This document shows positions 531 through 61,142 of a stretch of 64,000 nucleotides of DNA, piece after piece. This stretch comes from Nannobrachium achirus (lineage: Eukaryota; Chordata; Actinopteri; Myctophiformes; Myctophidae). The number at the start of each line of letters is the position of its first letter. Within the stretch, counting starts at the first letter, position 1. A model generated the notes under the pieces. The model ran no database searches, was not told where the DNA came from, and saw only the letters and a program-made list of their open reading frames with translations. A program made the translations under genes and the position numbers. Location of the stretch: assembly GCA_963921795.1 (NCBI GenBank), contig OY997639.1, positions 52,845,318-52,909,317 of the forward strand. The letters run 5' to 3'.

Positions 531-1634
531 TATAGTTTACAGTTTACAGTTTAGGCATTTAGCAGACGCTTTTAATCCAAAGCGACTTACAATAAGCAGA
601 TACAAAACATCACAAGATAATATGTCAGTACATCAACAGCAATATAACAAGTGCAAATGGATATCTATCTAGAAAAAAAACACAATAAAATCAAAGTTCT
701 AAAAAAACCTAAAAACAAATGCTAACTATCTTCATGTATGGTCATTGATTTTCTGTAGTGCTAAGGGTTTAGGTGGAGTCTGAAGAGGTGGGTCTTCAGT
801 CCACGGCGAAAGCTAGCGAGTGAGTCCGTTGTTCTAAGTGCGACAGGGAGTTTATTCCACAACTTGGGGGCCAGGAGGGCAAACTGTCTCGGACGAGTGG
901 ATTTTTGCCCTGGAGTTTTTAGCGAGGGTTCTGTCAGCCTCCCTGTGTTGGCTGATCTAAGTGAACGGGTGGGGGTGTAGGCGTTGATCAGGTCTTGGAG
1001 GTATGGAGGAGCCATACCTTTGGCTGCTTTGAAGGTCAGCATCAGTGTTTTGTATTCAGTGCGGGCCGCAACCGGGAGCCAGTGGAGGCTGCGGAGAAGG
1101 GGAGAGACATGTGAGAACTTAGGCTGGTTGAAGACCAGTCGTGCCGCGGCGTTTTGGATCAGTTGGAGAGGTTTAAGTGCACATGCCGGGAGACCAGTGA
1201 GGAGAGAGTTACAATAGTCAAGTTTTGATATGACAGATGTCTGAATGAGGAGCTGGGCTGCCTCCTGGGTGAGGAAGGGTCTGATTTTACGGATGTTGCA
1301 GAGTGTGAACCTACAGGATCGGGTGACTGATGCAATGTGTGCCTTGAATGATAGCTGGCTGTCCAGGACCACACCAAGGTTTCTAGCAGTAGGAACTGAA
1401 GTCACCAATGCATTATCTATGGAAATAGTGAGATCTTGCATGGGGCAAGACTTAGCTGGGAAGAAGAGTAGCTCCGTCTTGTCCGGGTTCAGCTTGAGGT
1501 GGTGGGCTGACATCCACTGTGAGATGTCGGCCAAACATGCTGCAATGCGTTCTTCCACCTGGGTTGCAGAAGGGGGGAAGGACAAAAACAGTTGAGTGTC
1601 ATCAGCATAGCAGATATGTGTGTATATGAGCGTA
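530..1634 (-). mobile_element. 5'-truncated L2/CR1-type LINE (reverse transcriptase C-terminal part)
   Basis: On the minus strand the reading frame starts at YADDTQLFLSFP, the catalytic RT box. It runs through HHLKLNPDKTE, NLGVVLDSQLSF, KLDYCNSLLTGL, LHWLPVAART and ARQFALLAPKLWNKLP-type motifs to a stop at 761. This is the classic end of fish L2 (Maui-like) ORF2. The 3'UTR continues to about 530 and holds the widespread fish segment GGCATTTAGCAGACGC. The 5' part of the element is missing, and a hAT element sits immediately beyond the truncation. Confidence 0.85.
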
Positions 1635-1642
1635 TATGAGAC

Positions 1643-2058
1643 TAGAGCCCGACAGATATATCGGTCAATTCGATATATCGGTTGTTTTGGAGATATCGGA
1701 AGGGTATCGAACATCGGTGAATTATTCCACCGATATCCGATATATTGTATAATAAATAAATAGATAAAAGACACATATTAATTCATAAACGAGACAAAAC
1801 ACAGCAGAACCCCCAAATTAAAAGAGTATTATTATCCAACAAGCAATAGAAATTGATAACTGCGACCAAACTCAAAGTTTTGACAAAAATGCAATAATCT
1901 GACCATTTATCCGAGGGGCGAGCAGTCAATTAAATGATCTTAAATGAATAAAAAATGATTTTTACAAAACATCGGTATCGATATCGGTATCGGTGCTCTA
2001 GCACTCTCCAACATCGGATATCGGTATCGGTCGAAAAAATGGTATCGGTCGGGCTCTA
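1643..2058. mobile_element. Non-autonomous hAT element with 8-bp TSD
   Basis: Terminal inverted repeats TAGAGCCCGAC/GTCGGGCTCTA, flanked by TATGAGAC at 1635-1642 and 2059-2066. The inside is rich in ATCGGTATCGG repeats near both ends. No transposase ORF is present. Confidence 0.85.
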
Positions 2059-19769: not shown

Positions 19770-22700
19770 CTAAGCAGGGACAGAGAGGGCAGCCTCTGAT
19801 TGGCAGGAATTGAGAAAATAAGGGACCAATGAGAAATTCTTCAGCGTCATCTCCTGGGCGATGCCAGTGTCCTGCATCTCAAACCTAGAAGAAGAAATCA
19901 AACAGCGTGAGAAAAAGGGGATGTTTACTCGCGACACATAAAAATGTGTCTGAGACTCAAACATGGGTCCCGACACACTGTTTGGGTCACCAAAGATCTA
20001 GTCAACAATCATTGACACACAAAAACAATCAACAATCAAACCAATCTCAGTCTCCATACCAGTCTCCAGAAGAAATTATGTAATAGATGGGCGGTGCAGG
20101 TGTGGCCGATGGCAAGGTGGAGATGGGCTGACCCAGATTGTAGGCTCCGGCATTATCAAAGAGAAGCCAGTCCCCAACACTGAGCTCAGGCAACAGACAA
20201 TGCTCGACCACCTGATCCATGTCATCGCCAGTCGGACCCCACAGACTGCTGCTGAACACTGGGCCATTCAGGGCTGTGCCCTAGTAGCGGAAAGCGGAAA
20301 CAGAAATTACGTATGTAAGCTCAATAGAGGAATTACAAACATAAAATACGTAAATATGTAAATATAGGTATACTTTTCACTTTGCGGTGTGTTATATTAA
20401 ATACTGTAAAAAATAAATTTAAACATGCCACGGTTTATGTGTAGTAGCTTTGCATTGCCACCAAATAGGGAACTTGTCCGAAGTGAAACGATACCATTTC
20501 ATAGATGCTGAACAGTCTGTGTAGTACGCAACCTAGCTCTTCTTTAAAAAAGCTTTACACCAACCAACCTTGTGAACAGACGGTGCTGGAATCACAGTAT
20601 CAGTGAGCTTTCTGGCAAAACACCCATACACTCCCTCATTCACGTGGTACTGGAACTCTGGCTCATCGTTTGGAGATGGTTCATCTGGAATACATTTGAG
20701 TAAAGCACGTTCTTCTAGTTGAATAACATAAATACGTTTGAGTAACAGTTTGATTATCCCAGGGACAATATTACTCACTTAATAAGGACTGTTCACTTTT
20801 TAGCACTTTTGAAATATCATTTCATGTCTTCTAGCCACTAACCATGTGCCTGGTCCTGGCGATCTCGTGCCACCACATCTTTGGAGATGACACTGACAGC
20901 CAGAGTGAAAGCAGCAGACACAAAATAGCTGCCAGGCTCAGCAATAATGGACACCCCAGAGGATAGAGGGAAGTACAGGTCGACCATAGACATGACCACA
21001 CTGTTAATCTGGAAGTAAAAAAAAAGGTATACCCAGAACCACATGTTAAAAGAGTTCAACTACTCACTGTGTGCTTGTTACACAATGGTTGAAAAAGTAG
21101 ACTATACAAATGTGATGCATTTCTCACACATTCTATTGCGTGCCTAAACCTCAGAGGAATCCACTGAGTGAGAGCAGGCCTAATACATAACCAAGTTTAA
21201 TCACAGTCAGGCTTTGTTGGAGAGGCTAATCTGTGACGTCCCACATGCTACACACAACTGAGCAAGGCTGGTCTTGACTCAGTGTTATGTAAGGAGCAAA
21301 TTGAAACACACACTGACCTGTTTCAGCTGGTTCTCTGACCCGCTGAAGCCACCTCCAATGTTCAGGATGCTCATATTGAAGCCCATGTCCTCCTGAAAGT
21401 AAAAACCTTTTGTTAATACATCATCTAAGGTGGGCGCGATACTGAGAGTAGTGATAAAGTCTCTGGGGTGACCCTGCTGACTCTGTGTTAACATTATTGC
21501 ATGACGTGTAGAATGAGAAAAGAACATTTTCTGTGAGGTATATTCAAGGATTTCCAGTGTTTGTGCAAACTCTGTATCAGGCTGTAGAATTGCATTGCAC
21601 TAAACTATCACATCAACAAAACCTCACTTACCCCCATGTCAAAGACACAACGGGCATCTGAGACAGCATGGATGTATGCCTGGTCATCCTCACAGGAGCT
21701 GGGGATGTGGAACCTTGAGAGCAGAGCATGGAGAATGTTTTAGATTGTATTCCAAGAAGAAGAGAGTAGCCATATGGGCTTCCAAAGAAATAAAGCATCA
21801 TAAAGAATCAGGACTTCATTTGGCAGCAGATTATTCACAAACATGGAGAGCGTATTCAGGGGGGGGTGTTTGTGTTCCGGCCCAGACACAAACGGCCCTC
21901 TGCACCCGGCGTGCACCGGACTACTTGAGGCCGGCCAAGAGTCCTCGGTGCCCAGATATCGTGCCGTCTAGGCGGGATTCTGACTTAGAGACATTCATAA
22001 GCAATGGTAGTCACCCCAGTGGCTCCTCAGTCAAGCATCAAATGTCTGCATCATAGCTTAAGACTTAGGGGCCTCACAGATGAGAGGCCGATGTTGGGTC
22101 AGATCAGATCTCGTGCCCGGGGTTTATCGGTGTTCATTTCAAACGACAGCGATCATCTGTCTTGCGACCGGGCCCGGTATATCCCGCTGTGCCAAGTGAA
22201 ATATCTCAGACCATTACAAATGAGACCGACGTCTCGCGATTCTAGCCACCCACGATCTCGGGGGGGTGGTGCCATGAGAGACGTGACTAGATGAAGATTC
22301 CGCCCCCTCAAGAGGGATAAAATCAAGAGTGTTTTTCTCTCTCTCTCTTCACGTCAGTTTAATTGCCATTTGTTTAATGTTTTGACAATGAGGGTGTTCC
22401 AGGTGATCCCCAGCTTAATGATGGAGACCAAATATTTACCAAAAGGACTATTATTTATACTAAAGGGAATCTTTCTCCAAAATAATCAATTAGGCCTACC
22501 GCATGCCAGCAAAGTCAACGAGCCAACGACCCAATTAGCGCAGAAGTCCTGCAGCTGCGGTGTTCTGACTCGCTATGCTCCAAAATCCATTTTATTACCT
22601 AATTAAATATTAAAACAGCGAAATTAAACAAATATATTCGCTATAGTCTATAACAAAGAGTCTCTCTCTCTCTCTCTCTCTGTCTGTGCCATATTTGTAG

Positions 22701-25700
22701 CTAATAATGCAGTATTGATACTTTTACTTAAGTAAAGAATGGGAGTAGCCTATACTTTTTCCATCACTGCGCAAATTAGACTACAGAGGCGCACATGGGT
22801 ATGGTATAACGTACCTTGATTACAGGAGAAAATAATAAAATGTACTTCTTAAAATGAATTCATCATGCTTGTGCTTGTTGCTAAAAAGTAGGTATTGGCA
22901 ACATGACTAGTGTATCGCATGCATGCTTTCACACGTGCAAGACAACAGCCATGTTACCATACCTTAGCATTTGCAGAACTGACGCTGCTGGCAGCCGGAG
23001 GAGGAGGACATTATGAGCGAGTGTGCAGGCCTATTCGTGGACTCTTTTTATTCTGACTTTGGTTGGTGTTATTACTGTTATGTTGATATGATTGATCTGA
23101 ACCAAGCTGGACCCAGTGGATTATGTAGTCTACAAGGAAGCACGTTGGCTGTCTCACCCTGTCTGTCTGTCACAGCAATGGATTAATTGGTAGAAGTTGG
23201 TGTTACATTCTTCTTTCGTGTATCATCGTCCTTTGCACACAAGTGATAACTGCGCCATCATGACAAAACATTATAAAAACAAAGGTAGGTTGGTAGTCTT
23301 CTAGGTAGGCTACTGTGCGCACACTGGCCGCTGCTCACTTTATAGATATTATAATTATATATTCAGTTATGTTTTTGGCAAGCGAGACACGAGATGTGAT
23401 GCGCATCCAGCAAGACACGGCTGAGAGTGTCGCATCTCCAATATCATTGATTGACCAGTGTCCACTCCTAAAAAGCATCAACCAGCATTTTAACGGCAAC
23501 CAGCCAGACATTAAACAGACATGAGCTTAATCAGCTAATAGCAATTATGAATGTCCAAACCTCGCCGTTGTGGGCGTGCAGTCGCAGAAAAAAAAAAAGT
23601 TTAACCTCTCGCTTTTTTTTTTTAACTGTCCCACCAACATCCAAGCATATAGAATAGGGACAGGCCTAGGTTCCTCAATATCATTTAGCTGGGGACCCCC
23701 TGGAACTCCCCAAGGACTGGCGGTCCTCTTTGAGGACCAATGAACAAACTGACAGAACGAGAGGCGCAATGATGTGCCTGCAGCCCGCGCGTAAAAGTAA
23801 AAAAAAAAAGGAATGCAATGGAATGTCTCTGACTTTGAGTATTACATTATATGAATAAGATATTATATATAGGGTGTCTGTCTGTCAAGTTGCACAAGGT
23901 CAATTTAGAGCCCTTATAATACACGGATAGAACAGCACTGCCCTAGCCAAATCTGCCAAAAAAAAAGACACTGCCTTGTTGCCAAATGACTGCGCAGAAG
24001 AAGAAAAAAGAAGAAAGAACGCTATAGGCTATAACGTTTTTGAACAAGTGATTACAACAAGGGAGAGAGTAGGCTAAAGTAAAAAGTAAGTAGGCTAATA
24101 ATAATAATAAAAGTGTAGGCTGTGACAGAATAGCCTACACTCTGCGCAGCCTAAAAAAGGGAGGAGCTGGCTTCATATAATCTGATGCAATCCCGTGAGC
24201 TCATTCAGACGACAATAATTGTAAAGGATTCCTACCCGATGACCCGAAAATATCAAGCTTTTTTGATATTATCGTGAGTGCTCCCGACGAGTCCCGAGGT
24301 CATAAAAAAGCTAATTAACATAATCCGATCGTGTCGGGGTACTGTTCAAGCCCAAGACCGATTCCGGGGCCGACCAAACGATTTTCCCGGGGGGTCCTCC
24401 CGAAATCTGGTCGGGGATCCTCGGCCCCGGGATCGGCTCAATGTGAACGGGCCTTTAATGCGGGTTGTCTTCTTCTACCTGAAGGTACAAGCCACTGTCA
24501 AATCTATCACCAATGATGGCAATTCAGCAGGCCTCACCTGACCCCCACCACCTGGACACCCAGCTCCATAGAACTCTCTAGCATGTGTCTGCATTCCTTC
24601 AGGGAACAGCCAAATGTCATGCTTGTTTCCTCTGCATGGTTGGACGCTTCTGTTGAAACCTGTAGCAGCAGTCTAGACAAGAAAGAGGGAAATGCTTTTA
24701 AGTGCTTATTTATTGAAAGATTAAATACAAGTAAATGTCAAAAGATAGAAAAAGAGAAGACAGATACAAAATGTTCAAGTATAACCACCAAAACTAATCA
24801 GAAAATCTCTGCTTGAAATAGCTGACATATAACTTGGCACCTACTTGGCATTTGGATGGCAACGAGAAATCTTGCGTAGTTCTGCTTCGTTGTCACACAC
24901 AAGGAGGTCGAAACCATTTTTAGCAGCATATTTAATCTGAGAGAGCTGTTTGCAAACTCCACTGTAGATAATATCTTCATGTGGAATACCATGGGTCTGC
25001 ACCAACTCCAGTTCAGACTGAGAAAGAAAGAAAAACACGCATAATAAAAGCATAAAGTAAATGCTACTTTAAATACATTTATGTGGAGTACTGGGGAGCT
25101 GGTACAGATAAAATGCTGTACAATACAACTAGGGGTGGGCGATATGGTGATAAACATCGCTGAGAAGATACAATGTCTCCACGATATGCCTTTTCAAAGA
25201 AATCATATATATTGTGATACAAGAGGAGCCTTATAAAAAAAATCCTGTTGAATTGTTAATACAGAGATTCATTGCAGAATCCATCTATACCTGCATTTTG
25301 GTCTAAATCAGTGGTTCTCAAACTTTAAAATGTCAAGGTCTCCCCTTAACTCTGACAGTGTACAAATGAAACCAAATGGACCCGTAAGTGTCCATTTGGT
25401 TTAATTTGTACACTGTCAGAGTTACATACTTGTAAGGATCAATTTAGACCTCCCAAAAGGAACCCAGAGAGTCCTGGACCCAACTTTGAGGACCACTGGT
25501 CTAAATGGTCTCTTACTCCTTTTTCTTTTAGTTTTTGTTACCTTGTACTGTAGATGGTTGTACTGTTAAATAACCATAAAAACCAACATAAAAAAGAATC
25601 GTGATAAGATTTTGTATCGTGATACAGCTTGGGAAAATATTGTGATAGTGTATTTTTCCATATTCCCACTCCTAAATACAACTGCCTGGGATCAGTACCA

Positions 25701-26584
25701 TTTTTTAGTTTCTGATCTGGTCTGGAGCGGAAACAGTCTAGGTCATGGTGTAGTCCTCAGGCGGACTACACTTTGACTGGAAAGATCAAACCAGAAACAG
25801 TTTTAACCCAAAAGAAATCCCCGCACTCAAGGGCATTGTTTTAGGGCCTACCCAATAAAACCCTTGATGCAGTGTGGTTTGCTTATTTTTTGAAAAGTTT
25901 GTTTGGTACGGTATATCCATCTTTTAGTCCAACTCGTAACGACTGGCAAGAATACTCTTCTCGAGCATTTAAATGGGGATAGAGGAAACAAAACGAGTCG
26001 AAGCCGCTTCTTCTGCTTGTTGGCCACGCCTAGAGCGGATCACACAGCCTGTTTTAAACGAATACCAGGCTTTCCTCTGTCTGGTGATATGAGGTTAGAA
26101 TACAACCACCCAAATTATTGATACTGAACACTAGGCGGTGCCGTTTATCAAATTTTCGTGGTTTGTCTTGATTTTGGCTTGACAGTGAGCAACACTTTGG
26201 CTTAACAGTGAGCAACACTACAGTATAGTGGAGCACAGCATACCAAGGATCAGATCACAATGGTAAAAAACGAATTTGAACATATGTAGAGAAGGGTGAT
26301 GCCATGAGAGTGAGAAGCTGGGTACCTTGTTAGTACACACAAATCCAGTGCCAAGGGCCGCAAGAACTTCAATAACAGCTGGGCTGCTGTTGCATCTGAC
26401 AGCATAGAAAGGCCGAATCTGGGCCATGTGAGTTCGCCAGCGAACATGCTGCCTCATTATGACTCCCAGGTCTGCTACGAAGAATGCATTCTTCTCCGCC
26501 TGGGGGAGAAACACAAATGGCATACAATTAATAATCAATTAAGATTAAAATCCATGTAAACTCTAAGGAACATATCCAGTGCAA

Positions 26585-26662
<78 letters not shown>

Positions 26663-26782
26663 AACAGCACTGCTCATTACCAGGGTTTGTTCATCGATGT
26701 GATTGCCAATCACTTCGCTGAGGGCAGTGCCTCCCTCCAGCAGGCCAATGGAATACTGTGGTTCATCAGCAATTCCTTTCAT
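19770..26782 (-). CDS. azin1: Antizyme inhibitor 1, main ORF (452 aa, 10 coding exons)
   Basis: Cytosolic ornithine-decarboxylase homologue without enzyme activity. It binds antizyme more tightly than ODC does, so it frees ODC and raises polyamine levels. Coding exons on the minus strand: 26782-26681 (ATG), 26499-26326, 25017-24845, 24672-24538, 21713-21632, 21392-21318, 21008-20843, 20684-20569, 20280-20060 and 19884-19770 (stop TAG). All splice sites are GT-AG and every phase agrees. Landmarks are the start [15 protein letters not shown], the antizyme-binding stretch [33 protein letters not shown], and [16 protein letters not shown]. The C-terminus is [10 protein letters not shown] rather than an ODC degron. 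ODC catalytic positions are degraded: Arg at 69 (PLP lysine), Glu at 319 (Asp332 of ODC) and Gly at 359 (Cys360). Human AZIN1 has 448 residues. The first coding exon begins at 26797 with 15 bases of 5'UTR. azin2 and odc1 are excluded by the lysine loss and by the upstream uORF. Confidence 0.95.
21925..22050 (-). repeat. 28S rRNA-derived fragment in an azin1 intron
   Basis: The plus strand reads GGCGGGATTCTGACTTAGAG, then ATGGTAG, then TGGCTCCTCAG.CAAGCA and AAATGTCTG. These are the complement of the 3' part of large-subunit rRNA in correct order, with small deletions and substitutions. Sequence on both sides (about 21860-22290) is also GC-rich and may belong to the same insert, but I could not match it to rRNA. 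It is not a functional rRNA gene. Confidence 0.7.
22300..24170. other. azin1 intron without recognised genes
   Basis: A long intron between exons at 21713 and 24538. It holds a (TC)n run near 22660 and a decayed hAT-Charlie fragment near 23690-23745 (GGGGACCCCC, TTGAGGACCA). No other supported structure. Confidence 0.4.
24200..24462. repeat. GC-rich MITE-like segment
   Basis: Ends with AATGTGAACGGGCCTTTAA, a terminus type typical of fish DNA transposons. The interior has CCCCGGGATC, GGTCGGGGATCC and CCCGA repeats. The matching left end was not found. Confidence 0.3.
25130..25674. mobile_element. Non-autonomous hAT element with perfect TSD, itself carrying a nested hAT
   Basis: Ends TAGGGGTGGGCGATATGG and CCATATTCCCACTCCTA. 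AATACAAC at 25122-25129 and 25675-25682. GTGATA-type subterminal repeats on both sides. It sits in an azin1 intron. Confidence 0.85.
25309..25498. mobile_element. hAT-Charlie MITE nested in the 25130-25674 element
   Basis: Ends CAGTGGTTCTCAAACTTT and AACTTTGAGGACCACTG, with GTCTAAAT at 25301-25308 and 25499-25506. An internal palindrome around ACCAAATGGAC/GTCCATTTGGT occupies most of its 190 bp. Confidence 0.85.
25685..26105. repeat. Dispersed repeat, copy A (about 420 bp)
   Basis: Shares long blocks in order with 50331-50765: CTGATCTGGTCTGGAGCGGAAAC-like, GGCGGACTACA, CAGTTTTAACCCAAAA, CCAACTCGTA.CGACTGGCAAGA, GCCGCTTCTTCT and ACCAGGCT. A shorter, more decayed relative of its left end is at 8825-8905. 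Probably a non-autonomous DNA element; the ends are not precisely defined. Confidence 0.7.
26588..26660. repeat. (TG)n microsatellite close to azin1 coding exon 1
   Basis: About 36 TG units, 20 bases downstream (in azin1 orientation) of the donor of the ATG exon. Confidence 0.98.
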
Positions 26783-30530: not shown

Positions 30531-30653
30531 AGGGACGAGTCCTATGATGGAGCTCCCCCAGTATCAGCTAGGATCCCAAGGTGGCTCGGCATTGAAGTCA
30601 AACGGCTCTCGGTAGAGAGCCGCCCCTAGGCCCTCAGGATAGTTGTTGTACAC
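30531..30653 (-). other. azin1: azin1 5'UTR exon 2 (carries the C-terminal part of the uCC)
   Basis: A 123-bp exon with acceptor TTTCTGCAG before 30653 and donor GTGAGT after 30531. It holds 29 uCC codons plus stop (30653-30564) and 33 bases of leader. Confidence 0.85.
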
Positions 30654-33170
30654 CTGCAGAAAGGAACACACAGGGACAGAGCACAGAGATTGTAGTGTGA
30701 CAGATGCTATGTCCAGTGAGAACAGTAGATTTGCACCCCCCCCCCCCTTTCCCTACCATTAGGGACATTCTTCAGTTTACAAAAGGAGATTAAAATAGGT
30801 TTAATAAAAAAAGTATAGCAGGATGGGATGGATACACTCACAAGAAAAAAGAAGAAAAGGAAATGGGCAAAGCTCTGAATGAACACACATGCCAGTATAT
30901 CTTATGACATCAAGCTTCAGCTATACTCCATCCAAAACGGTCACATGATAGGGTTGCCACCTGTCCCGTAAAATACGGAATTGCCTTTAATCATGCAAAC
31001 AGTTTTGAACCGATAGGGGACATGATTTGTTCATAAAAACAGCATCACATACATCACTGAATTTGAACATGAGAAAAGAGCCAGCTAATTTTGTTTGTGC
31101 AAAATGTGAGTGGGAAGAATCAATCACTTTTTGACAGTGTCAGTCAGAGGGTATGAATATAAACCAAACTATAATGAATGTATGATAGTTATGTTTTCTG
31201 TGACACATGCATGGTGGCCTGGTAGTCGGAAATGTCACCTGAAGAGCAAACACTCCTGAGTACCAACTGGTCTTTGAATCTCAAGCACTTGAATCCCAAA
31301 CTACAGTATGGAACAACTTATTCTGATCAATTAGATGTCCTGTCTGGTTGTTTATTTACTAGCAAATAAATGTAAATCTTGACCCCTGTCCACGAGTTAT
31401 AGATACACACAATTAATATGAATCAATAAAAATATAGTGCCCATGTGAAGAACAACTGAGCATATAACAATAAATACACTCTAACAATCTGGAAAACTGC
31501 CTTCTTCAATACCAAAAGTAAAATTGTGCCAAGAGATTGAATATACAGTATTTGTAGAGATATCTGACTGTGTATTGCAGCTAAGGCCAGGCCAGTCAGT
31601 GAGTACAGACAGAGTGGACTCACTCAATTCCTTATAACTGACTTGCTAATATGCCTATTACTAATATACCTATAAGCACACTGTTGACATAATATGTCCA
31701 GTGATGTAAAGTAAGTAACTAAGTACATTTATTTAAGTACTGTACTTAAGTACTAGCTTGAGGTATGTGTACTTTACATGAGTATTTCCAATTTCCACTA
31801 ATTCTACTCCAGTCTCTCCACTACATCTCGGATCCAAATATTCTACTTTTACTCCGCTGCATTTATTTTAAAACTTTAGTTCTAGTTACTTTGCAGATAT
31901 CAATTATATTACAAAACATACATAAACCCCCTGGTACTTTAAGTACATTTTGAGGGGTCCCTATGTTCCCCAAGTTCTATGTTGGCCAGGTTCTATGTTC
32001 CCCACCCACCCTCCCCACAAAAAGGTTCTATGTTCCCCGGTCAACCCAAAAAAAGATCTATTGTATATTCCCCACCAAAAACAAGTAGGCCTATATGTTC
32101 CCAACTCAAATGCAGGAAATGGTGGGACATCTGGGCACTAAGAACATGTGGGCAATCCTAATTTAAGTGCTCAGTTGCCCTGGTGCCCAGATGTCTCCAT
32201 CCCTAAGTGCCCACTCGTCTAGGTGCCCACTCGTCCAAATGCCCACATGTCTCTATTGCCCAGATGTCCAGGTGACAACTCGTCCAGATGCCCAGTCATA
32301 ACAAAAGTATGGTGTCCAGATGTCCCTAGTGCCCCCTGTCCCACTATTATCGTGTCCCCATTTCTCCCCATTATCGTGTCCTCCACTGGCTGTCAGTCAG
32401 TCTCTGTCTGTCTGTCAGTCAGTCAGGTCACATGTCACACTTTTCCCCTACTCATATCTCCGCAACCGCAACCGTTGGCCCTATCCATGCTAAACTTTGC
32501 ACACACCCCTCATTTCTCACATGGCCCTCTTCTAGCGCCACCATGAGGCCGATTCTTGCAAAACACATTTTTGGACACTGCTCCTACAGATTTTGCCCTA
32601 AAATCATGCAAAGCGGTGTAGCCTATACATGTGACCTGACGGTCGCATATCTCCCGATTAAGGAGTCTTTACGGGTAATTAGAAATGAATGTTTCCTGCA
32701 TTTTACATAGAACCTGGGGAACACAGGTACGGTCTCCATTTTGATGGCAACACTTTCATACTTTTACACATGTAAAAACATGTGTATTTCGATTGCAGTA
32801 TCGTTTTACATAAGTAATACATGTGAGTACTATTTCCACCACTGCACTGTTGACATGTCATGCAGTGCTAACTCATTCAGAATCCAATATATTAAGCAAG
32901 CATGTGAAACATAGCTAACGTTAACAAGCGATTTATAATATTGATACTACTAGATAGCTAGCAAAACAACTCAGATGTTGATCGATTGGTCTATTTTGAG
33001 AAGCCATCAGTCAACGTTAAGGTTTGCTAACTTAAAACATGATTTATAAACTGTGTTGTGCATTACCAACACGCTAACTGCCGTTAGCTACAACACGCTA
33101 ACGACGCCGTACTTACGTGTAGTGGAAACCCAAAAGTGGGGGTGGATCGCTTTCTCTTTTTAGGCGGAAT
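30564..33170 (-). CDS. azin1: azin1 upstream conserved coding region (non-AUG uORF, AUU start, PPW stall motif)
   Basis: Two 5' exons join into a 47-codon uORF: 33170-33117 (donor GTAAGT at 33116) and 30653-30564 (acceptor TTTCTGCAG). An in-frame TAG at 33182-33180 lies only four codons upstream of the ATT at 33170-33168, and there is no in-frame ATG. The ATT has A at -3. The peptide begins (I/M)PPKKRKRSTP and ends AEPPWDPS followed by TGA. In vertebrate AZIN1 mRNA the uCC is known to start at AUU and to carry a Pro-Pro-Trp motif at which ribosomes stall when polyamines are high; queuing then raises AUU initiation and shuts off the main ORF. The second uCC exon continues as 5'UTR to its donor at 30531. 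The main ATG lies in the next recognised exon at 26782, so the uORF is wholly upstream. The split by a 2.5-kb intron explains why an ORF scan does not show it. Confidence 0.88.
31698..32850. mobile_element. MITE-like block with TACTT termini containing a minisatellite
   Basis: The left end CCAGTGATGTAAAGTAAGTAAC and right end GAGTACTATTTCCACCACTG resemble inverted ends of a common fish element rich in AAGTACTTAAGTA. CACTGTTGACAT occurs just outside both ends. Inside is a degenerate tandem array (31955-32330). The block lies in the azin1 first intron. Confidence 0.45.
31955..32330. repeat. Degenerate minisatellites (TTCTATGTTCCCC and GTGCCCACTCGTC types)
   Basis: Imperfect repeats of GGTTCTATGTTCCCC (31962-32100) are followed by repeats of AGGTGCCCACTCGTCCA and CCAGATGTC (about 32165-32330) with roughly 20-25-base spacing. 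Confidence 0.6.
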
Positions 33171-33460
33171 TTTTGAAGACTAGTGTGATTTACTAAAGAA
33201 AATAAAGGCTAGCTGCCATGGACGGGACGACGTGTGGATCTTTATTGCCGGACGACGACGTGTTTTCGATGGAAGCTCCGCTGCATTTTCTGTTAGAGGA
33301 GGTTATTATCGTCGAGCTGGTCGCGCGCGCGGAGGTAACGGTCGGTTCGGCAGCAGAGAGAGCAGACACACAGAGAACGATGGGCGGGGCATGGAGCTGT
33401 CAAAGTCAAGAAAATGGTACTCTCGCGTTAATCTTGCCAAAGGTGGAGCCGGTAAATTTG
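33117..33460 (-). promoter_or_regulatory. azin1: azin1 first exon and GC-rich promoter region (5' limit not resolved)
   Basis: The first exon ends at 33117 with a perfect GTAAGT donor. Upstream (33200-33460) the DNA is CpG-rich with GGGCGG and CGCGCG runs, as expected for a housekeeping promoter. The start site cannot be fixed from sequence. A plus-strand ORF at 33218-33538 overlaps this GC-rich stretch and is not recognised. Confidence 0.5.
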
Positions 33461-33833
33461 CTTTGCAGTTTGCAAATCCGGTCTCAAGCGGATACGGAAG
33501 CGGTTTGTCGTGTATATGTGGAAAGTACTAAACAGTAGGCGGACTCTAGTCGGATCTGAGCACTGAACAGTAAAAGGTAACCAGGGTCCAGGGCTTGTCA
33601 TAGCTCTGGTCCATCCATCCATAGCGTCAGGAGTTATCCTTAACGCTATATGTCACCGATGATCCCTTGCGCCGCAGGAAAGGCTGCGGACTTGTCTGTA
33701 GTAAAAAATAAAAAAAAATAAAAACTACCATTTCACTAGATTAGGCACAACAACAAAGACGGCTTTAATAGGGAGCTGAAAGCCTTCTTTCCTTAGTGGG
33801 AACACTCCGCCCCCCCACTTCAGTCTAAAATAC

Positions 33834-33945
33834 TAGCCATAAATTATAACTACCAGGAGATATGTCGCTAATATTCGGACGTTGTGGCTGCACACAACGT
33901 CCGAATATTAGCGACATATCTCCTGGTTGTTATAATTTATGGCTA
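33834..33945. mobile_element. 112-bp almost perfect palindrome with 9-bp TSD (foldback MITE)
   Basis: Arms of 53 bases (TAGCCATAAATTATAAC... / ...GTTATAATTTATGGCTA) with about one mismatch and a 6-base loop. CTAAAATAC abuts both ends (33825-33833 and 33946-33954). A 9-bp duplication is the size made by Mutator-like transposases. Confidence 0.85.
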
Positions 33946-33954
33946 CTAAAATAC

Positions 33955-52499: not shown

Positions 52500-52832
52500 T
52501 GGAATGCTAAAGAGAGAGAAGGGGCGGGGGGGGGGTCATGTGATGACGAGTGTGGTTGCTCGGCTGGAAGCTGACAGGCTTTCAGACCATGAAAATAGAG
52601 TCATATGACGGGGGTACCAAAGGAAAACACTGCAAGGCATCGGACGGGGGAAATGAAATAATCATTGGTCGTTGTGTGGTGGTGCTGTGGCAGCTGCTTG
52701 CTGCTGCTGCTGAGCGAGAGCGAGAGAGAGGGAAGAGGAGAGGAGGACAGAGCATCAATGTGCCCAGGTTGCCATAACGGCCTGGAGTTCCTCTCGTCGT
52801 CGCCGGGCCTCCTCTGTTGATATAATGAAAGG
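52500..52832 (+). promoter_or_regulatory. spire1: Probable spire1 promoter/5'UTR region
   Basis: A GC-rich stretch between the AT-rich atp6v1c1 downstream region and the spire1 ATG, with GGGGCGGGG at about 52522, CTG repeats near 52700 and a GA-rich leader. The start site is not determinable. Confidence 0.4.
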
Positions 52833-54520
52833 ATGGCGAAACAGCGAGACGCGGCCGACGGAGAGCTGATAGAGGCTGCGGTCCATGAAGACGACGAGGA
52901 GCAGCATCATAGCGGGTTGGCAAAAATGGGTGGAACGGAGGCGGAGGACCTCTCGTTGGAGGAGATACTGAAGCTTTACAGCCAGCCGATCAACGAGGAG
53001 CAGGCTTGGGCTGTGTGCTACCAGTGCTGCAGGGCGCTCGCAAAGGAGCACCGGAGAAGGAATTCCAGCGCCGCAGCATCAGCGGCGGATCATGCGAGGA
53101 GGATAGAAGGACCAGGGGACGTGCGGATCCACAAAGACGGTTCTGTTAGTGTACAATATCAGGGCTTTGCAGGTAAAAACTATTATGTAATACATTTCTA
53201 CACACATCTAGGTCAGATGTGTGCTGGATTTCAAAGTGATTGTAGGCTATTTGATATTGATCAAGTGTTTGTCTATTTGGGACATTTGATGTTAAACGAC
53301 AGCACACGTGGAGGCTTGCTGTATTATTAGGCAGTCAATTGCCATTGTCTATTATCTTAATTAACACCTCATATTTTGCAACATGAATAGCCTATGATGA
53401 TTGTCAGTGGTAGGCTACTGTAAATGCGTTTATAATGTATAGGGGCAGGCTACTCCAAGTCATATTTATAGCCTCGCCATGTGTGGATAATTAATTGCTT
53501 GATTGATTGATTGATTGATTGATTGAAGGCTTTATTAGAAGTTTGCATAGGAAAAGGTACAGTTTCATGACGGTACAGTTCACTGGTACAAGGTCTACTA
53601 AAAGGAGATCCTGAAAAGACTAAGCTTATTTCAACAGGAAACCATTAAAGTATCTCATATAACATTGAATGACAGACGAATAGAACACAGTACTATGCAG
53701 TAGATATGTAAATAAAAGAAAATGAGAGAGGAAAAAAAAAGAGAAAACAGTAAGTCTAAACAAACAGTAAGTAGGCCTATATACAAAGAAGGGGCAGGGG
53801 AAATTTAGTCACCCAGAGGCGGCACAGCAGTTAAGGTTACAGGACAGTAAGAAAAAAGAAAAAGGACTGTTGTGTACAGCCGAGCGACAAAAACAAACAA
53901 GAAAGAAGAAACAACAATACAGGAGAATCAACCATACAGAGCAATTAACAATTAGTTAATTATATATATATATATATATATAGTGTCGAGAACAGTTTGA
54001 AAAAGAAAAAGACACAACACAACAAAAGAATAGTAGTGCTTAACGTTTCTATAATGGATTGCAATTTTAAGTGACTTTTCTAAGCATATTGCAAACTCAA
54101 AGAACTTACAATGGTCCATTCATCCAAACATTAGGAACTACTTATCAACACGGTGCCAAAAATATATATACACACAAATATACAGTAGGTCTATACATAG
54201 GCGTCTGCACCAAGACATTTGACATTTAGCTGACCAGCCCACTTCCACTGGCCAAGGCTTTGCTACCTAAACAAAGGAATGATTTATCTTCTACCCAGAC
54301 CCCCATGAAACTCTCACCATGCACGGCCTGAGAGGCATCAACTACTAGCCTAATTTATATCCCAGTGACTGTTAGCTGTTACCTACAGTAGGCCTGGCCT
54401 ATAGCTATATCTCACATTATTTCAGATTAGAGCATTCATTACATTATTTTTATTTGTTTTAATTCAAGACTTGAAGTCTGATTCAAGCCTGAATTTCAAG
54501 CTCTGGTGATCAGACTATCA

Positions 54521-57910: not shown

Positions 57911-58475
57911 TTAAGGTACTGTAAGGTACAGTACCTTACAGTATTGTACTGTACCTTACTATACTGTACTGCACCTTACTGTACTGTACTGTACTGTACT
58001 GTACTGTACTGTACTGTACTGTAACTTACTGTACTTTACTGTACTCTACTGTACTGTACTTTACTGTATTCTACTGTAACTTACTGTACTTTACTGTACT
58101 CTACTGTACCTTACTGTACTGTACTCTACTGTACCTTACTGTACTGTACTGTACCTTACTGTACTATACTATACTGTACTCTACTGTACCGTACTGTACC
58201 TTACTGTACTGTACTCTACTGTACCTTACTGTACTCTACTGTACTTTACTGTACTCCACTGTACCTTACTGTACTTTATTCTACTTTACTGTACTTTATT
58301 GTACTTTACTGTACTCTACTGTACCTTACTGTACTGTATTGTACTTTACTGTACCTTACTGTACTGTACTCTACTGTACCTTTCTGTACTGTACCTTTCT
58401 GTACCTTACTGTACTTTACTGTACTCTACTGAACCTTACTGTACTTTTACTGTACTCTACTGAACCTTACTGTAC
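57911..58475. repeat. GTACT/CTTACT satellite array, copy 1
   Basis: Five-base periodic DNA made of TACTG, TACCT, TACTT and TACTC units, about 560 bases. Confidence 0.95.
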
Positions 58476-59325
58476 TGTACATATTCTATGTGTTCTAGAT
58501 CTACATTTTTGATTATGTGTTTGGGAACCAGCAACTGTCAAATGGACTCCAACTGTAGTGGAGTATATTGAGTGCATATACTGTAGGCTAACAATCCCAG
58601 ATCACATATGTCCTCCACTATGTCTATAACCAAGGCGTTCTTCTATGTGGCCACTCCAGACTGAAGAGTGGAGCATGGCTTTTATTGTGTTTGTGGATCT
58701 GACTTGGAAATGCATTGGTTTTGATATCTCCCTGACAACCAACAACAACCACTAATATGGCTGACTGTCCCTGCGGGCTCTAGGATATATGGCTATGGGA
58801 TTTACATCCCATCGCCCGGACTTGATTCTTGATCACAGCTGTGTAATCAGTAGAGTGGAGAGGGACATTTATTTATAGTTTTAACTATAACTATAGTTTT
58901 ATACATCACACAGCTTAGACATTTGGATCAAATCAGAGAGCAGACCTGTGTGAACGCAATGATATAGATAGCATATCTGAAGTGTGAACACTGCAGCCAC
59001 AGCGCCTTAACATAAACATGGGTCTATTATCCTTCTCTCCACTCTGTCCCCACTCACTAAACCCATTGGAAATGCATTGGGTGCTTAAAGTTAAACATTT
59101 TTATTTTTTTATATTTATACTACAAAACATTTCAAAACCAAAAATACAAGCACACTTGTCCTCAGTAAGCTGAACACATAAAAATTTGAATGGTGTTGAA
59201 AGGTGTAAGCGTTTAAGAGATGAAGCGCGCCAAAATATTGAGGAGATACTGACTAGTATATAAACTAGAAATACTGTTCCTTCGAAACAGTGTGGGCTCG
59301 ATTCCAACCCAACAAATAGGATACT

Positions 59326-60370
59326 TTAAGGTACTGTAAGGTACAGTACCCTACAGTATTGTACTGTACCTTACTATACTGTACTGCACCTTACTGTACT
59401 GTACTGTACTGTACTGTACTGTACTGTACTGTACTGTAACTTACTGTACTTTACTGTACTCTACTGTACTTTACCTTACTGTACTTTACTGTACTCTACT
59501 GTAACTTACTGTACTTTACTGTACTCTACTGTACCTTACTGTACTGTACTTTACTGTACTCTACTGTACCTTACTGTACTGTACTGTACCTTACTGTACT
59601 GTACCTTACTGTACTGTACTTAACTGTACTCTACTGTACCTTACTGTACTATACTGTACTGTACTCTACTATGCCGTACTGTAACTTACTGTACTGTACT
59701 CTACTGTACCTTACTATACTGTACTTTACTGTACTCTACTGTACCTTACTGTACTCTACTGTACTTTACTGTACTCTACTGTACCTTACTGTACTGTATT
59801 GTACTTTACTGTACTGTACTTTACTGTACACTACTGTATCTTGCTGTACCTTACTGTGCTGTACGTTACTGTACTTTACTGTACTTTACTGTACACTACT
59901 GTACTGTACTGTACCTTACAGTACTGTACTTTACTGTACTCTGCTGTACCTTACTGTACTTTACTGTACTCTACTGTAACTTACTGTACCTTACTGTACT
60001 GTACTTTACTCTACTCTACTGTACTGTACCTTACTGTACTTTACTGTACTCTACTGTACCTTACTGTACTGTACCTTACTGTACTGTACTTTACTGTACT
60101 CTACTGTGCCGTACTGTACCTTACTGTACTGTACTCTACTGTACCTTACTATACTGTACTTTACTGTACTCTACTGTACCTTACTGTACTCTACTGTACT
60201 TTACTGTACTCTACTGTACCTTACTGTACTGTATTGTACTTTACTGTACCTTACTGTACTGTACTCTACTGTACCTTTCTGTACTGTACCTTTCTGTACC
60301 TTACTGTACTTTACTGTACTCTACTGAACCTTACTGTACTTTTACTGTACTCTACTGAACCTTACTGTAC
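59326..60370. repeat. GTACT/CTTACT satellite array, copy 2 (expanded)
   Basis: The same five-base units over about 1045 bases. A block near 59701-59815 recurs near 60141-60250, so the array grew partly by internal block duplication. Confidence 0.95.
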
Positions 60371-61142
60371 TGTACATATTCTATGTGTTCTAGATCTACA
60401 TTTTTGATTCTGTGTTTGGGAACCAGCAACTGTCAAATGGACTCCAACTGTAGTGGAGTATATTGAGTGCATATACTGTAGGCTAACAATCCCAGATCAC
60501 ATCTGTCCTCCACTATGTCTATAACCAAGGCGTTCTTCTATGTGGCCACTCCAGACTGAGGAGTGGAGCATGGCTTTTATTGTGTTTGTGGATCTGACTT
60601 GGAAATGCATTGGTTTTGATATCTCCCTGACAACCAACAACAACCACTAATATGGCTGACTGTCCCTGCGGGCTCTAGGATATATGGCTATGGGATTTAC
60701 ATCCCATCGCCCGGACTTGATTCTTGATCACAGCTGTGTAATCAGTAGAGTGGAGAGGGACATTTATTTATAGTTTTAACTATAACTATAGTTTTATACA
60801 TCACACAGCTTAGATATTTGGATCAAATCAGAGAGCAGACCTGTGTGAACGCATTGATATAAATAGCATATCTGAAGTGTGAATATTGCAGCCACAGCGC
60901 CTTAATATAAACATGGGTCCCTTTCCTCACTAAACCCATTGGAAATGCATTGGGTGCTTAAAGTTAAACATTTTTATTTTTTTATAATTATACTACAAAA
61001 CATTTCAAAAAGAAAAATACACGCACACTTGTCCTCAGTAAGCTGAACACATAAAAATTTGAATGGTGTTGAAAGGTGTAAGCGTTTAAGAGATGAAGCG
61101 CGCCAAAGTTTTGAGGATACTGACTAGTATAGTATAGAAATA

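What the first reader, a model, noticed from the sequence alone, without database searches (positions are those of the whole stretch)
30564..33170. azin1 carries an intact, intron-split, AUU-initiated uORF ending in Pro-Pro-Trp
Joining 33170-33117 to 30653-30564 gives 47 codons without AUG, with an in-frame stop four codons upstream of the ATT and with PPWDPS before the TGA. This is the layout of the AZIN1 uCC, a polyamine-sensing peptide that arrests ribosomes and drives AUU start choice by queuing. The regulation is described for vertebrate AZIN1; the reconstruction here is from sequence, and an ordinary annotation would miss it because it has no AUG and spans two exons. The basic N-terminal stretch (KKRKR) is an extra visible feature.
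Basis: partly seen in the sequence, partly recalled or inferred. Interest (0 to 1): 0.85.

Follow-up and report, generated by a model that had tools for sequence, protein, structure and literature searches.

The report
AUU-started upstream peptide of fish azin1
In front of an antizyme-inhibitor gene, probably of a fish, lies the same hidden, AUU-started stalling peptide reported for the human gene, kept in a second copy of the gene too; it very probably lets polyamines turn the gene down, so it is a good new example of a known switch rather than a new one.

Summary
In detail: minus strand 33170-33117 joined to 30653-30564 gives 47 codons from ATT to TGA, ending PPWDPS, with an in-frame TAG four codons upstream and good splice signals. 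Behind it lies a complete azin1 frame, 10 coding exons, 452 aa, closest to human and mouse AZIN1. The human AZIN1 uORF peptide printed in PMC9648851 aligns from end to end, 36 of 45 aligned residues identical, including IPPKKR and FDFNAEPPW. KKRKR is therefore no extra feature. A second azin1 locus in the same genome has its own split uCC with the same donor and nearly the same ATT context. Between the copies the last 25 codons keep 24 residues, with 8 of 9 base changes at third positions; no 25-codon window of the compared main ORF keeps more than 20. The reading is supported by orthology; junction, AUU use and polyamine response were not measured. The exon-1 half is weaker except at its start; ORF length alone is unremarkable; other AUGs complicate the leader. 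New member of a known kind.

The parts
33168..33170 (-). AUU start codon of the uCC, context ucuucaaaaAUUcc (A at -3, C at +4)
   Evidence: context tctttaaaaATTcc in the C10 paralogue; human peptide starts at the same I-P-P-K-K-R
33117..33170 (-). exon-1 part of the uCC, codons 1-18 (IPPKKRKRSTPTFGFPLH)
   Evidence: local alignment score to human 52, none of 10,000 shuffles reaches it
30654..33116 (-). leader intron, GTAAGT...CTGCAG, phase 0
   Evidence: donor CAC|GTAAGT also in the paralogue; no transcript data
30564..30653 (-). exon-2 part of the uCC, codons 19-47 plus TGA (VYNNYPEGLGAALYREPFDFNAEPPWDPS)
   Evidence: 22 of the last 26 residues identical to human; 24 of the last 25 identical to the paralogue
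30576..30584 (-). CCA CCT TGG, Pro-Pro-Trp, the presumed polyamine-sensitive pause site
   Evidence: position; PPW as pause site from passages of PMC9082881, PMC11550727 and PMC11058473
30531..30653 (-). second leader exon, donor CCCT|GTGAGT
   Evidence: splice signals only
30542..30592 (-). short AUG uORF in another frame inside the uCC (MPSHLGILADTGGAPS), context acttcaAUGcc; not in the paralogue
   Evidence: the paralogue reads AACGCA at the place
33193..33219 (-). upstream AUG uORF MAASLYFL, ending 22 nt before the AUU, relevant only if transcription starts upstream of it
   Evidence: transcription start unknown
19770..26782 (-). azin1 main coding sequence, 10 coding exons, 452 aa, ATG at 26782-26780, stop TAG ending at 19770
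   Evidence: exon coordinates, no internal stop, GT and AG at the 9 introns; AZIN1 555.5 bits, ODC at most 410.1 bits. The acceptor between leader exon 2 and the ATG was not determined

Best explanation
This is the orthologue, probably in a fish, of the AZIN1 uCC, a stalling leader peptide. Shown by sequence: an open azin1 gene with a two-exon leader frame that starts at AUU in a weak context and ends in Pro-Pro-Trp-Asp-Pro-Ser-stop. Inferred from the mammalian system: with few polyamines most scanning ribosomes pass the AUU and make Azin1; with many polyamines eIF5A is hindered, a ribosome that reads the uCC pauses at Pro-Pro-Trp about 42 codons in, ribosomes queue behind it back to the AUU, AUU initiation rises and Azin1 synthesis falls, which frees antizyme to act on ornithine decarboxylase. 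In this genome both azin1 loci carry the element.
For: Full-length homology with the printed human AZIN1 uORF, 36 of 45 aligned residues identical (optimal alignment; 35 of 46 in the hand alignment). Both exon halves score above all of 10,000 shuffles each. The main ORF is nearer AZIN1 than ODC. Paralogue on C10 with ATT, IPPKKRRR, CAC|GTAAGT and FDFNAEPPWDPS-stop, its main ORF also nearer AZIN1 (315.5 bits) than ODC (at most 242). Between paralogues: uCC exon 2 pN 0.10, pS 0.43; from YPEG on, 7.5 synonymous and 1.5 non-synonymous changes over 25 codons, by codon position 0, 1, 8. 31 of 53 alignment columns are the same in human and both copies (hand alignment). Codon usage of the azin1 main ORF favours the uCC frame in exon 2 (10.8 against -1.7 and -6.0; 2 of 1316 overlapping open intronic stretches reach it). 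A search of the whole genome with the human peptide gives 4 matches at E up to 10: the two exon-2 copies (2.6e-9, 5.9e-9), C10 exon 1 (0.36), and one on C9 (1.7) that I did not follow.
Against: No transcript or ribosome data: the junction, the transcription start and AUU use are inferred. The exon-1 half taken alone does not look coding by codon usage (about -4.2, the difference of two values), is less constrained between paralogues (pN 0.29, pS 0.62), and at 34 of 54 identical bases is no more alike than the 33 bases after the stop, 23 of 33. C at +4 is reported as unfavourable for non-AUG starts (PMC9082881 passage), though Pro as second residue forces C there in human too. AUGs at 33392, 33286 and 33219 could interfere if transcribed. 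The window copy lacks a 6-residue segment that human has, so the first Pro of PPW is codon 42 and not 47. Window exon 1 was not among the 4 matches of the genome search with the human peptide, although local tblastn finds it (E 0.006).
Confidence: 0.93

Rival explanations
1. A chance open frame: the leader happens to be open between a stop and TGA, and PPW is coincidence.
For: ATT frames of 47 codons or more without ATG arise in 4608 of 20,000 shuffled leaders. An AEPPW in frame with exon 1 inside intron 1 of the paralogue shows how such a match can arise by chance, since GAGCCACCATGG reads E-P-P-W.
Against: End-to-end match with the human peptide, and a paralogue whose changes in the C-terminal part are mostly at third positions.
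Confidence: 0.01
2. The conserved stretch is kept as an RNA or DNA element (structure, splicing or protein binding) and the peptide matters little.
For: Synonymous change in uCC exon 2 (pS 0.43) is lower than in the main ORF (0.73), Fisher p 0.004 on rounded counts, 8 of 20 against 152 of 209, so some nucleotide-level constraint may exist on top.
Against: Change in exon 2 is concentrated at third codon positions, 2, 3, 10. Folding of the ATT-to-exon-2-end RNA is not clearly better than shuffles: z -0.23 (78 of 200 shuffles as good) for the window copy and -1.41 (20 of 200) for C10 with the lower acceptor, and the two predicted folds differ. No Rfam family at gathering score in 14000-40000.
Confidence: 0.04
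3. The uCC is intact as sequence but acts here mainly as a constitutive repressor or buffer, without polyamine-dependent queuing, because spacing and extra AUGs differ from human.
For: First Pro of PPW at codon 42 against 47; out-of-frame AUG 30592 and upstream AUGs.
Against: The end FDFNAEPPW.PS and the AUU, the parts the known mechanism needs, are conserved.
Confidence: 0.05

Closest known systems
Mammalian AZIN1 uCC (AUU-initiated uORF; Ivanov 2008 and 2018, not held and not read; described in passages of PMC9082881, PMC11550727, PMC11058473, PMC7530721, PMC4383229; human peptide printed in the S5 legend of PMC9648851, passage seen)
   Same: Same gene, Ile (AUU) start, IPPKKR start, YPEGLG..LYRE.FDFNAEPPW.PS end with PPW followed by three residues and the stop
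   Different: 47 codons instead of 52 (no GELSDQ segment in the window copy); first Pro of PPW at codon 42 instead of 47; two loci in this genome; whether the human frame is split by an intron at the same place was not checked
HOL1 uORF (PS-stop motif, polyamine-dependent; PMC11550727 passage; that it is a yeast gene is recalled)
   Same: Also ends in Pro-Ser-stop and is described as polyamine-dependent through the same factor
   Different: No sequence relation tested; the arrest described there is at release on PS-stop, whereas here PPW precedes PS-stop

Membership tests
AZIN1 uCC | Lies in the leader of an antizyme inhibitor 1 gene | tested here: met
   452-aa main ORF; 4zgz and 3btn (AZIN1) 555.5 and 548.8 bits against at most 410.1 for ODC
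AZIN1 uCC | AUU (non-AUG) start, no in-frame AUG | tested here: met
   ATT at 33170, stop four codons upstream; other in-frame near-cognates only AAG 5, AAG 7, GTG 19; use of the codon not measured
AZIN1 uCC | Conserved C-terminus with PPW near the stop | tested here: met
   FDFNAEPPWDPS-stop against human FDFNAEPPWEPS
AZIN1 uCC | Peptide-level conservation (synonymous excess) | tested here: met
   within-genome paralogues only: exon 2 dN 0.10, dS 0.64; exon 1 dN 0.37, dS 1.29, looser; other fish not available
AZIN1 uCC | Both parts spliced into one transcript | not testable with these tools
   splice signals only; same donor in paralogue
AZIN1 uCC | Polyamine-dependent pause at PPW and queuing-driven AUU initiation | not testable with these tools
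   needs reporters or ribosome profiling

The most novel reading that the evidence does not exclude
The end of the uCC is better preserved than any stretch of the duplicated azin1 proteins that I compared (24 of 25 residues against at most 20 of 25), and it stays intact even at the C10 copy whose main frame appears broken in exon 11; together with natural spacing variants (first Pro of PPW at codon 42 here, 42 or 49 by tandem in-frame acceptors at C10, 47 in human) this would mean that the peptide is selected beyond control of its own main ORF, and that queuing does not need a fixed AUU to PPW register.
Probability: 0.12. Interest if true: 0.6.

Novelty: new member of a known kind. Interest (0 to 1): 0.32.

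Why it matters
It shows that an AUG-less, intron-split regulatory peptide, which gene annotation based on AUG frames would miss, can be read straight from a genome, and it gives three natural versions (human, two copies here) that differ in spacing and in the middle of the peptide but not at the AUU or the PPW end. Those are ready-made test cases for the ribosome-queuing model. The mechanism itself is known.

Tried and rejected
Chance frame: rejected by homology. RNA structure as the conserved object: folds not clearly better than shuffles, no Rfam hit in 14000-40000. KKRKR as an extra feature: rejected, human has KKRRR. Alternative first exons: two other GTRAGT donors between 30700 and 37000, neither with a human-like start; weaker donors were not examined. 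Intronic AEPPW at C10: judged chance from a Kozak-like CCACCATGG. The bacterial sigma-70 promoter scan of the first exon means nothing for a eukaryote. Phage collection, tblastn of the 47 aa: 4 records, E 2 to 9, no real match. A scan for eight ODC/AZIN motifs written from memory found one; the exons were then found by open frames and splice signals.

Paper searches (8). For versions outside mammals: azin1a / azin1b / azin1 paralog, 2 papers, listing only; antizyme inhibitor + uORF + teleost + polyamine, 0; antizyme inhibitor + zebrafish + upstream open reading frame, 13 papers, of which I saw passages of 4 and only the listing of 9; strings such as AEPPW, 2 papers, one of them relevant. Of six papers I saw passages found by keyword; no paper was read whole. 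The library lacks the two founding papers, so I cannot say that fish uCCs are unpublished; I recall that vertebrate alignments were shown in 2008.

Rows and limits: the main-ORF comparison used 297 gap-free codons of exons 3-10; exons 11-12 and gapped parts were left out. Its E6 tail includes one codon at the splice junction. Binomial p values (0.009 for exon 2, 0.003 for all) used rounded counts, 8 of 15 and 16 of 35. The uCC comparison with C10 used the lower of its two acceptors. My first exon-7 end was one base off and was corrected within the same call.

Full report
Observation. The described frame is present at the stated coordinates. Minus strand 33170-33117 (54 nt) and 30653-30564 (90 nt) join to 47 codons and a TGA: IPPKKRKRSTPTFGFPLHVYNNYPEGLGAALYREPFDFNAEPPWDPS. 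A TAG stands in frame four codons upstream of the ATT. The first exon ends CAC|GTAAGT, the second begins after TTTCTGCAG and ends CCCT|GTGAGT. The only in-frame near-cognate codons besides ATT 1 are AAG 5, AAG 7 and GTG 19.

Chance. Length and openness are not remarkable: 4608 of 20,000 shuffled leaders hold an ATT frame of 47 codons or more without ATG. With PPW within five codons of the stop (frame of 30 codons or more) it is 6 of 20,000, and PPW near a stop in any frame 140 of 20,000.

The gene. Ten coding exons between 26782 and 19770 give a 452-residue protein without internal stop and with GT and AG at the nine introns; the acceptor between leader exon 2 and the ATG was not determined. 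The best solved structures are human and mouse antizyme inhibitor 1, 555.5 and 548.8 bits; ornithine decarboxylases reach at most 410.1. In that alignment the lysine of PFYxVKCN is arginine here and the cysteine of WGPxCD is glycine; that these are the cofactor lysine and a catalytic cysteine of ODC is recalled. This fits an inhibitor and not an enzyme.

Homology of the leader peptide. PMC9648851 (passages seen) prints the human AZIN1 uORF in the legend of its S5 figure. Optimal global alignment with the window peptide: 36 of 45 aligned residues identical, score 166 against a best of 29 in 10,000 shuffles; exon-1 half 52 against a best of 46, exon-2 half 131 against a best of 49. Tblastn of the human peptide on the window ranks the two exons first and second, E 2.5e-14 and 0.006, the third hit 1.0. 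The start I-P-P-K-K-R and the end F-D-F-N-A-E-P-P-W-x-P-S agree. The window copy lacks the human GELSDQ segment at the exon junction.

A second copy in the same genome. The genome search placed the window at G000:C2:52845318-52909317 of a 1.66-Gb assembly and found exon 2 again at C10:33256111-33256025, 2 matches in all. Upstream, at C10:33259086-33259033, lies ATT-IPPKKRRRFSKTFWPLSH followed by GTAAGT, in a stretch with CpG o/e 1.23 to 1.38. The sequence at the start is tcttcaaaaATTccgcc in the window and tctttaaaaATTccgcc at C10. The C10 exon 2 has two possible in-frame acceptors 21 nt apart; the upper one adds GSPVSAQ where human has GELSDQ. The C10 main ORF, 297 gap-free residues, also matches AZIN1 (315.5 bits) better than ODC (at most 242). 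A search of the genome with the human peptide gave 4 matches at E up to 10: both exon-2 copies, C10 exon 1 (E 0.36), and one on C9 at E 1.7 that was not followed; window exon 1 was not among them.

Selection. Between the paralogues uCC exon 2 has pN 0.10 and pS 0.43; from YPEG on, 25 codons have 7.5 synonymous and 1.5 non-synonymous changes, by codon position 0, 1 and 8. The exon-1 half is looser, pN 0.29 and pS 0.62, with codons 1-8 tighter (2 synonymous, 1 not); its 34 of 54 identical bases are no more than the 23 of 33 after the stop, while exon 2 has 72 of 87. Its codon usage alone does not look coding. So the exon-1 half is secured by its first eight codons and by the match to human, not by overall conservation. 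The compared main ORF has pN 0.24 and pS 0.73; the best of its 273 windows of 25 codons keeps 20 residues, mean 15.2, while the uCC end keeps 24 of 25.

Mechanism. Shown: gene, frame, splice signals, homology and constraint. Inferred from the known system (passages in PMC9082881, PMC11550727, PMC11058473): leaky scanning past a weak AUU when polyamines are low; when high, hindered eIF5A, pause at PPW, queue back to the AUU, more uCC translation and less Azin1. The weak start is itself conserved: C at +4, called unfavourable for non-AUG starts, is present in both copies here and is forced by the second residue proline in human. PMC9082881 says about 30 codons between AUU and PPW; the printed human peptide gives the first Pro of PPW as codon 47, the window 42, C10 42 or 49. 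If queuing works in all of them, the register cannot be strict.

Complications. The window leader has an AUG (30592) out of frame inside the uCC, in a poor context and absent at C10, which would make a 16-residue peptide ending at 30542; and AUGs at 33392, 33286 and 33219 upstream of the AUU, which matter only if transcription starts above them. No transcription start could be assigned.

Verdict. Observation confirmed, interpretation supported by orthology, function unmeasured. It is a new member of a known kind. The two founding papers could not be read, so priority for fish uCCs is open.

Noticed in passing
G000:C10:33241060-33240830 (L005): The paralogue's exon 11 shows its AZIN1-like pieces in three different frames, and its last exon looks short; either assembly indels or decay of the main ORF, while its uCC is intact.
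   Followed up: partly
G000:C10:33256132-33256112: Two in-frame acceptors 21 nt apart before uCC exon 2 could give a 47- or 54-codon uCC, a natural spacing variant.
   Followed up: partly
G000:C10:33258980-33258960: Inside intron 1 of the paralogue, in frame with exon 1, GAGCCACCATGG reads E-P-P-W; probably chance from a Kozak-like AUG.
   Followed up: partly
window 30567-30653: Synonymous divergence of uCC exon 2 (pS 0.43) is lower than in the main ORF (0.73), Fisher p 0.004 on rounded counts; a hint of extra nucleotide-level constraint.
   Followed up: partly
G000:C9:18571608-18571727: Weak match (E 1.7, 43% identity over residues 12-48) to the human uCC peptide inside a 708-residue open frame; probably chance.
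   Followed up: no
window 33831-33948: Near-perfect inverted repeat, 56-nt arms 96% complementary with 6 nt between, upstream of exon 1; looks like a small mobile-element palindrome.
   Followed up: no
window 26326-26499 and 20060-20280: The window Azin1 has R in place of the lysine of PFYxVKCN and G in place of the cysteine of WGPxCD, whereas human AZIN1 keeps both letters.
   Followed up: no
window 52821-53327: Plus-strand ORF with a KIND domain (PF16474, E 3e-25), likely a spire-type gene (name recalled).
   Followed up: no
window 764-1777: Minus-strand ORF with a weak reverse-transcriptase match (PF00078, E 6.8e-6, below the curated cut-off), probably a transposon remnant.
   Followed up: no
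window 57925-60404: Several long plus-strand open frames made of a repeat such as LTVLYCTLLY, a simple-repeat array.
   Followed up: no
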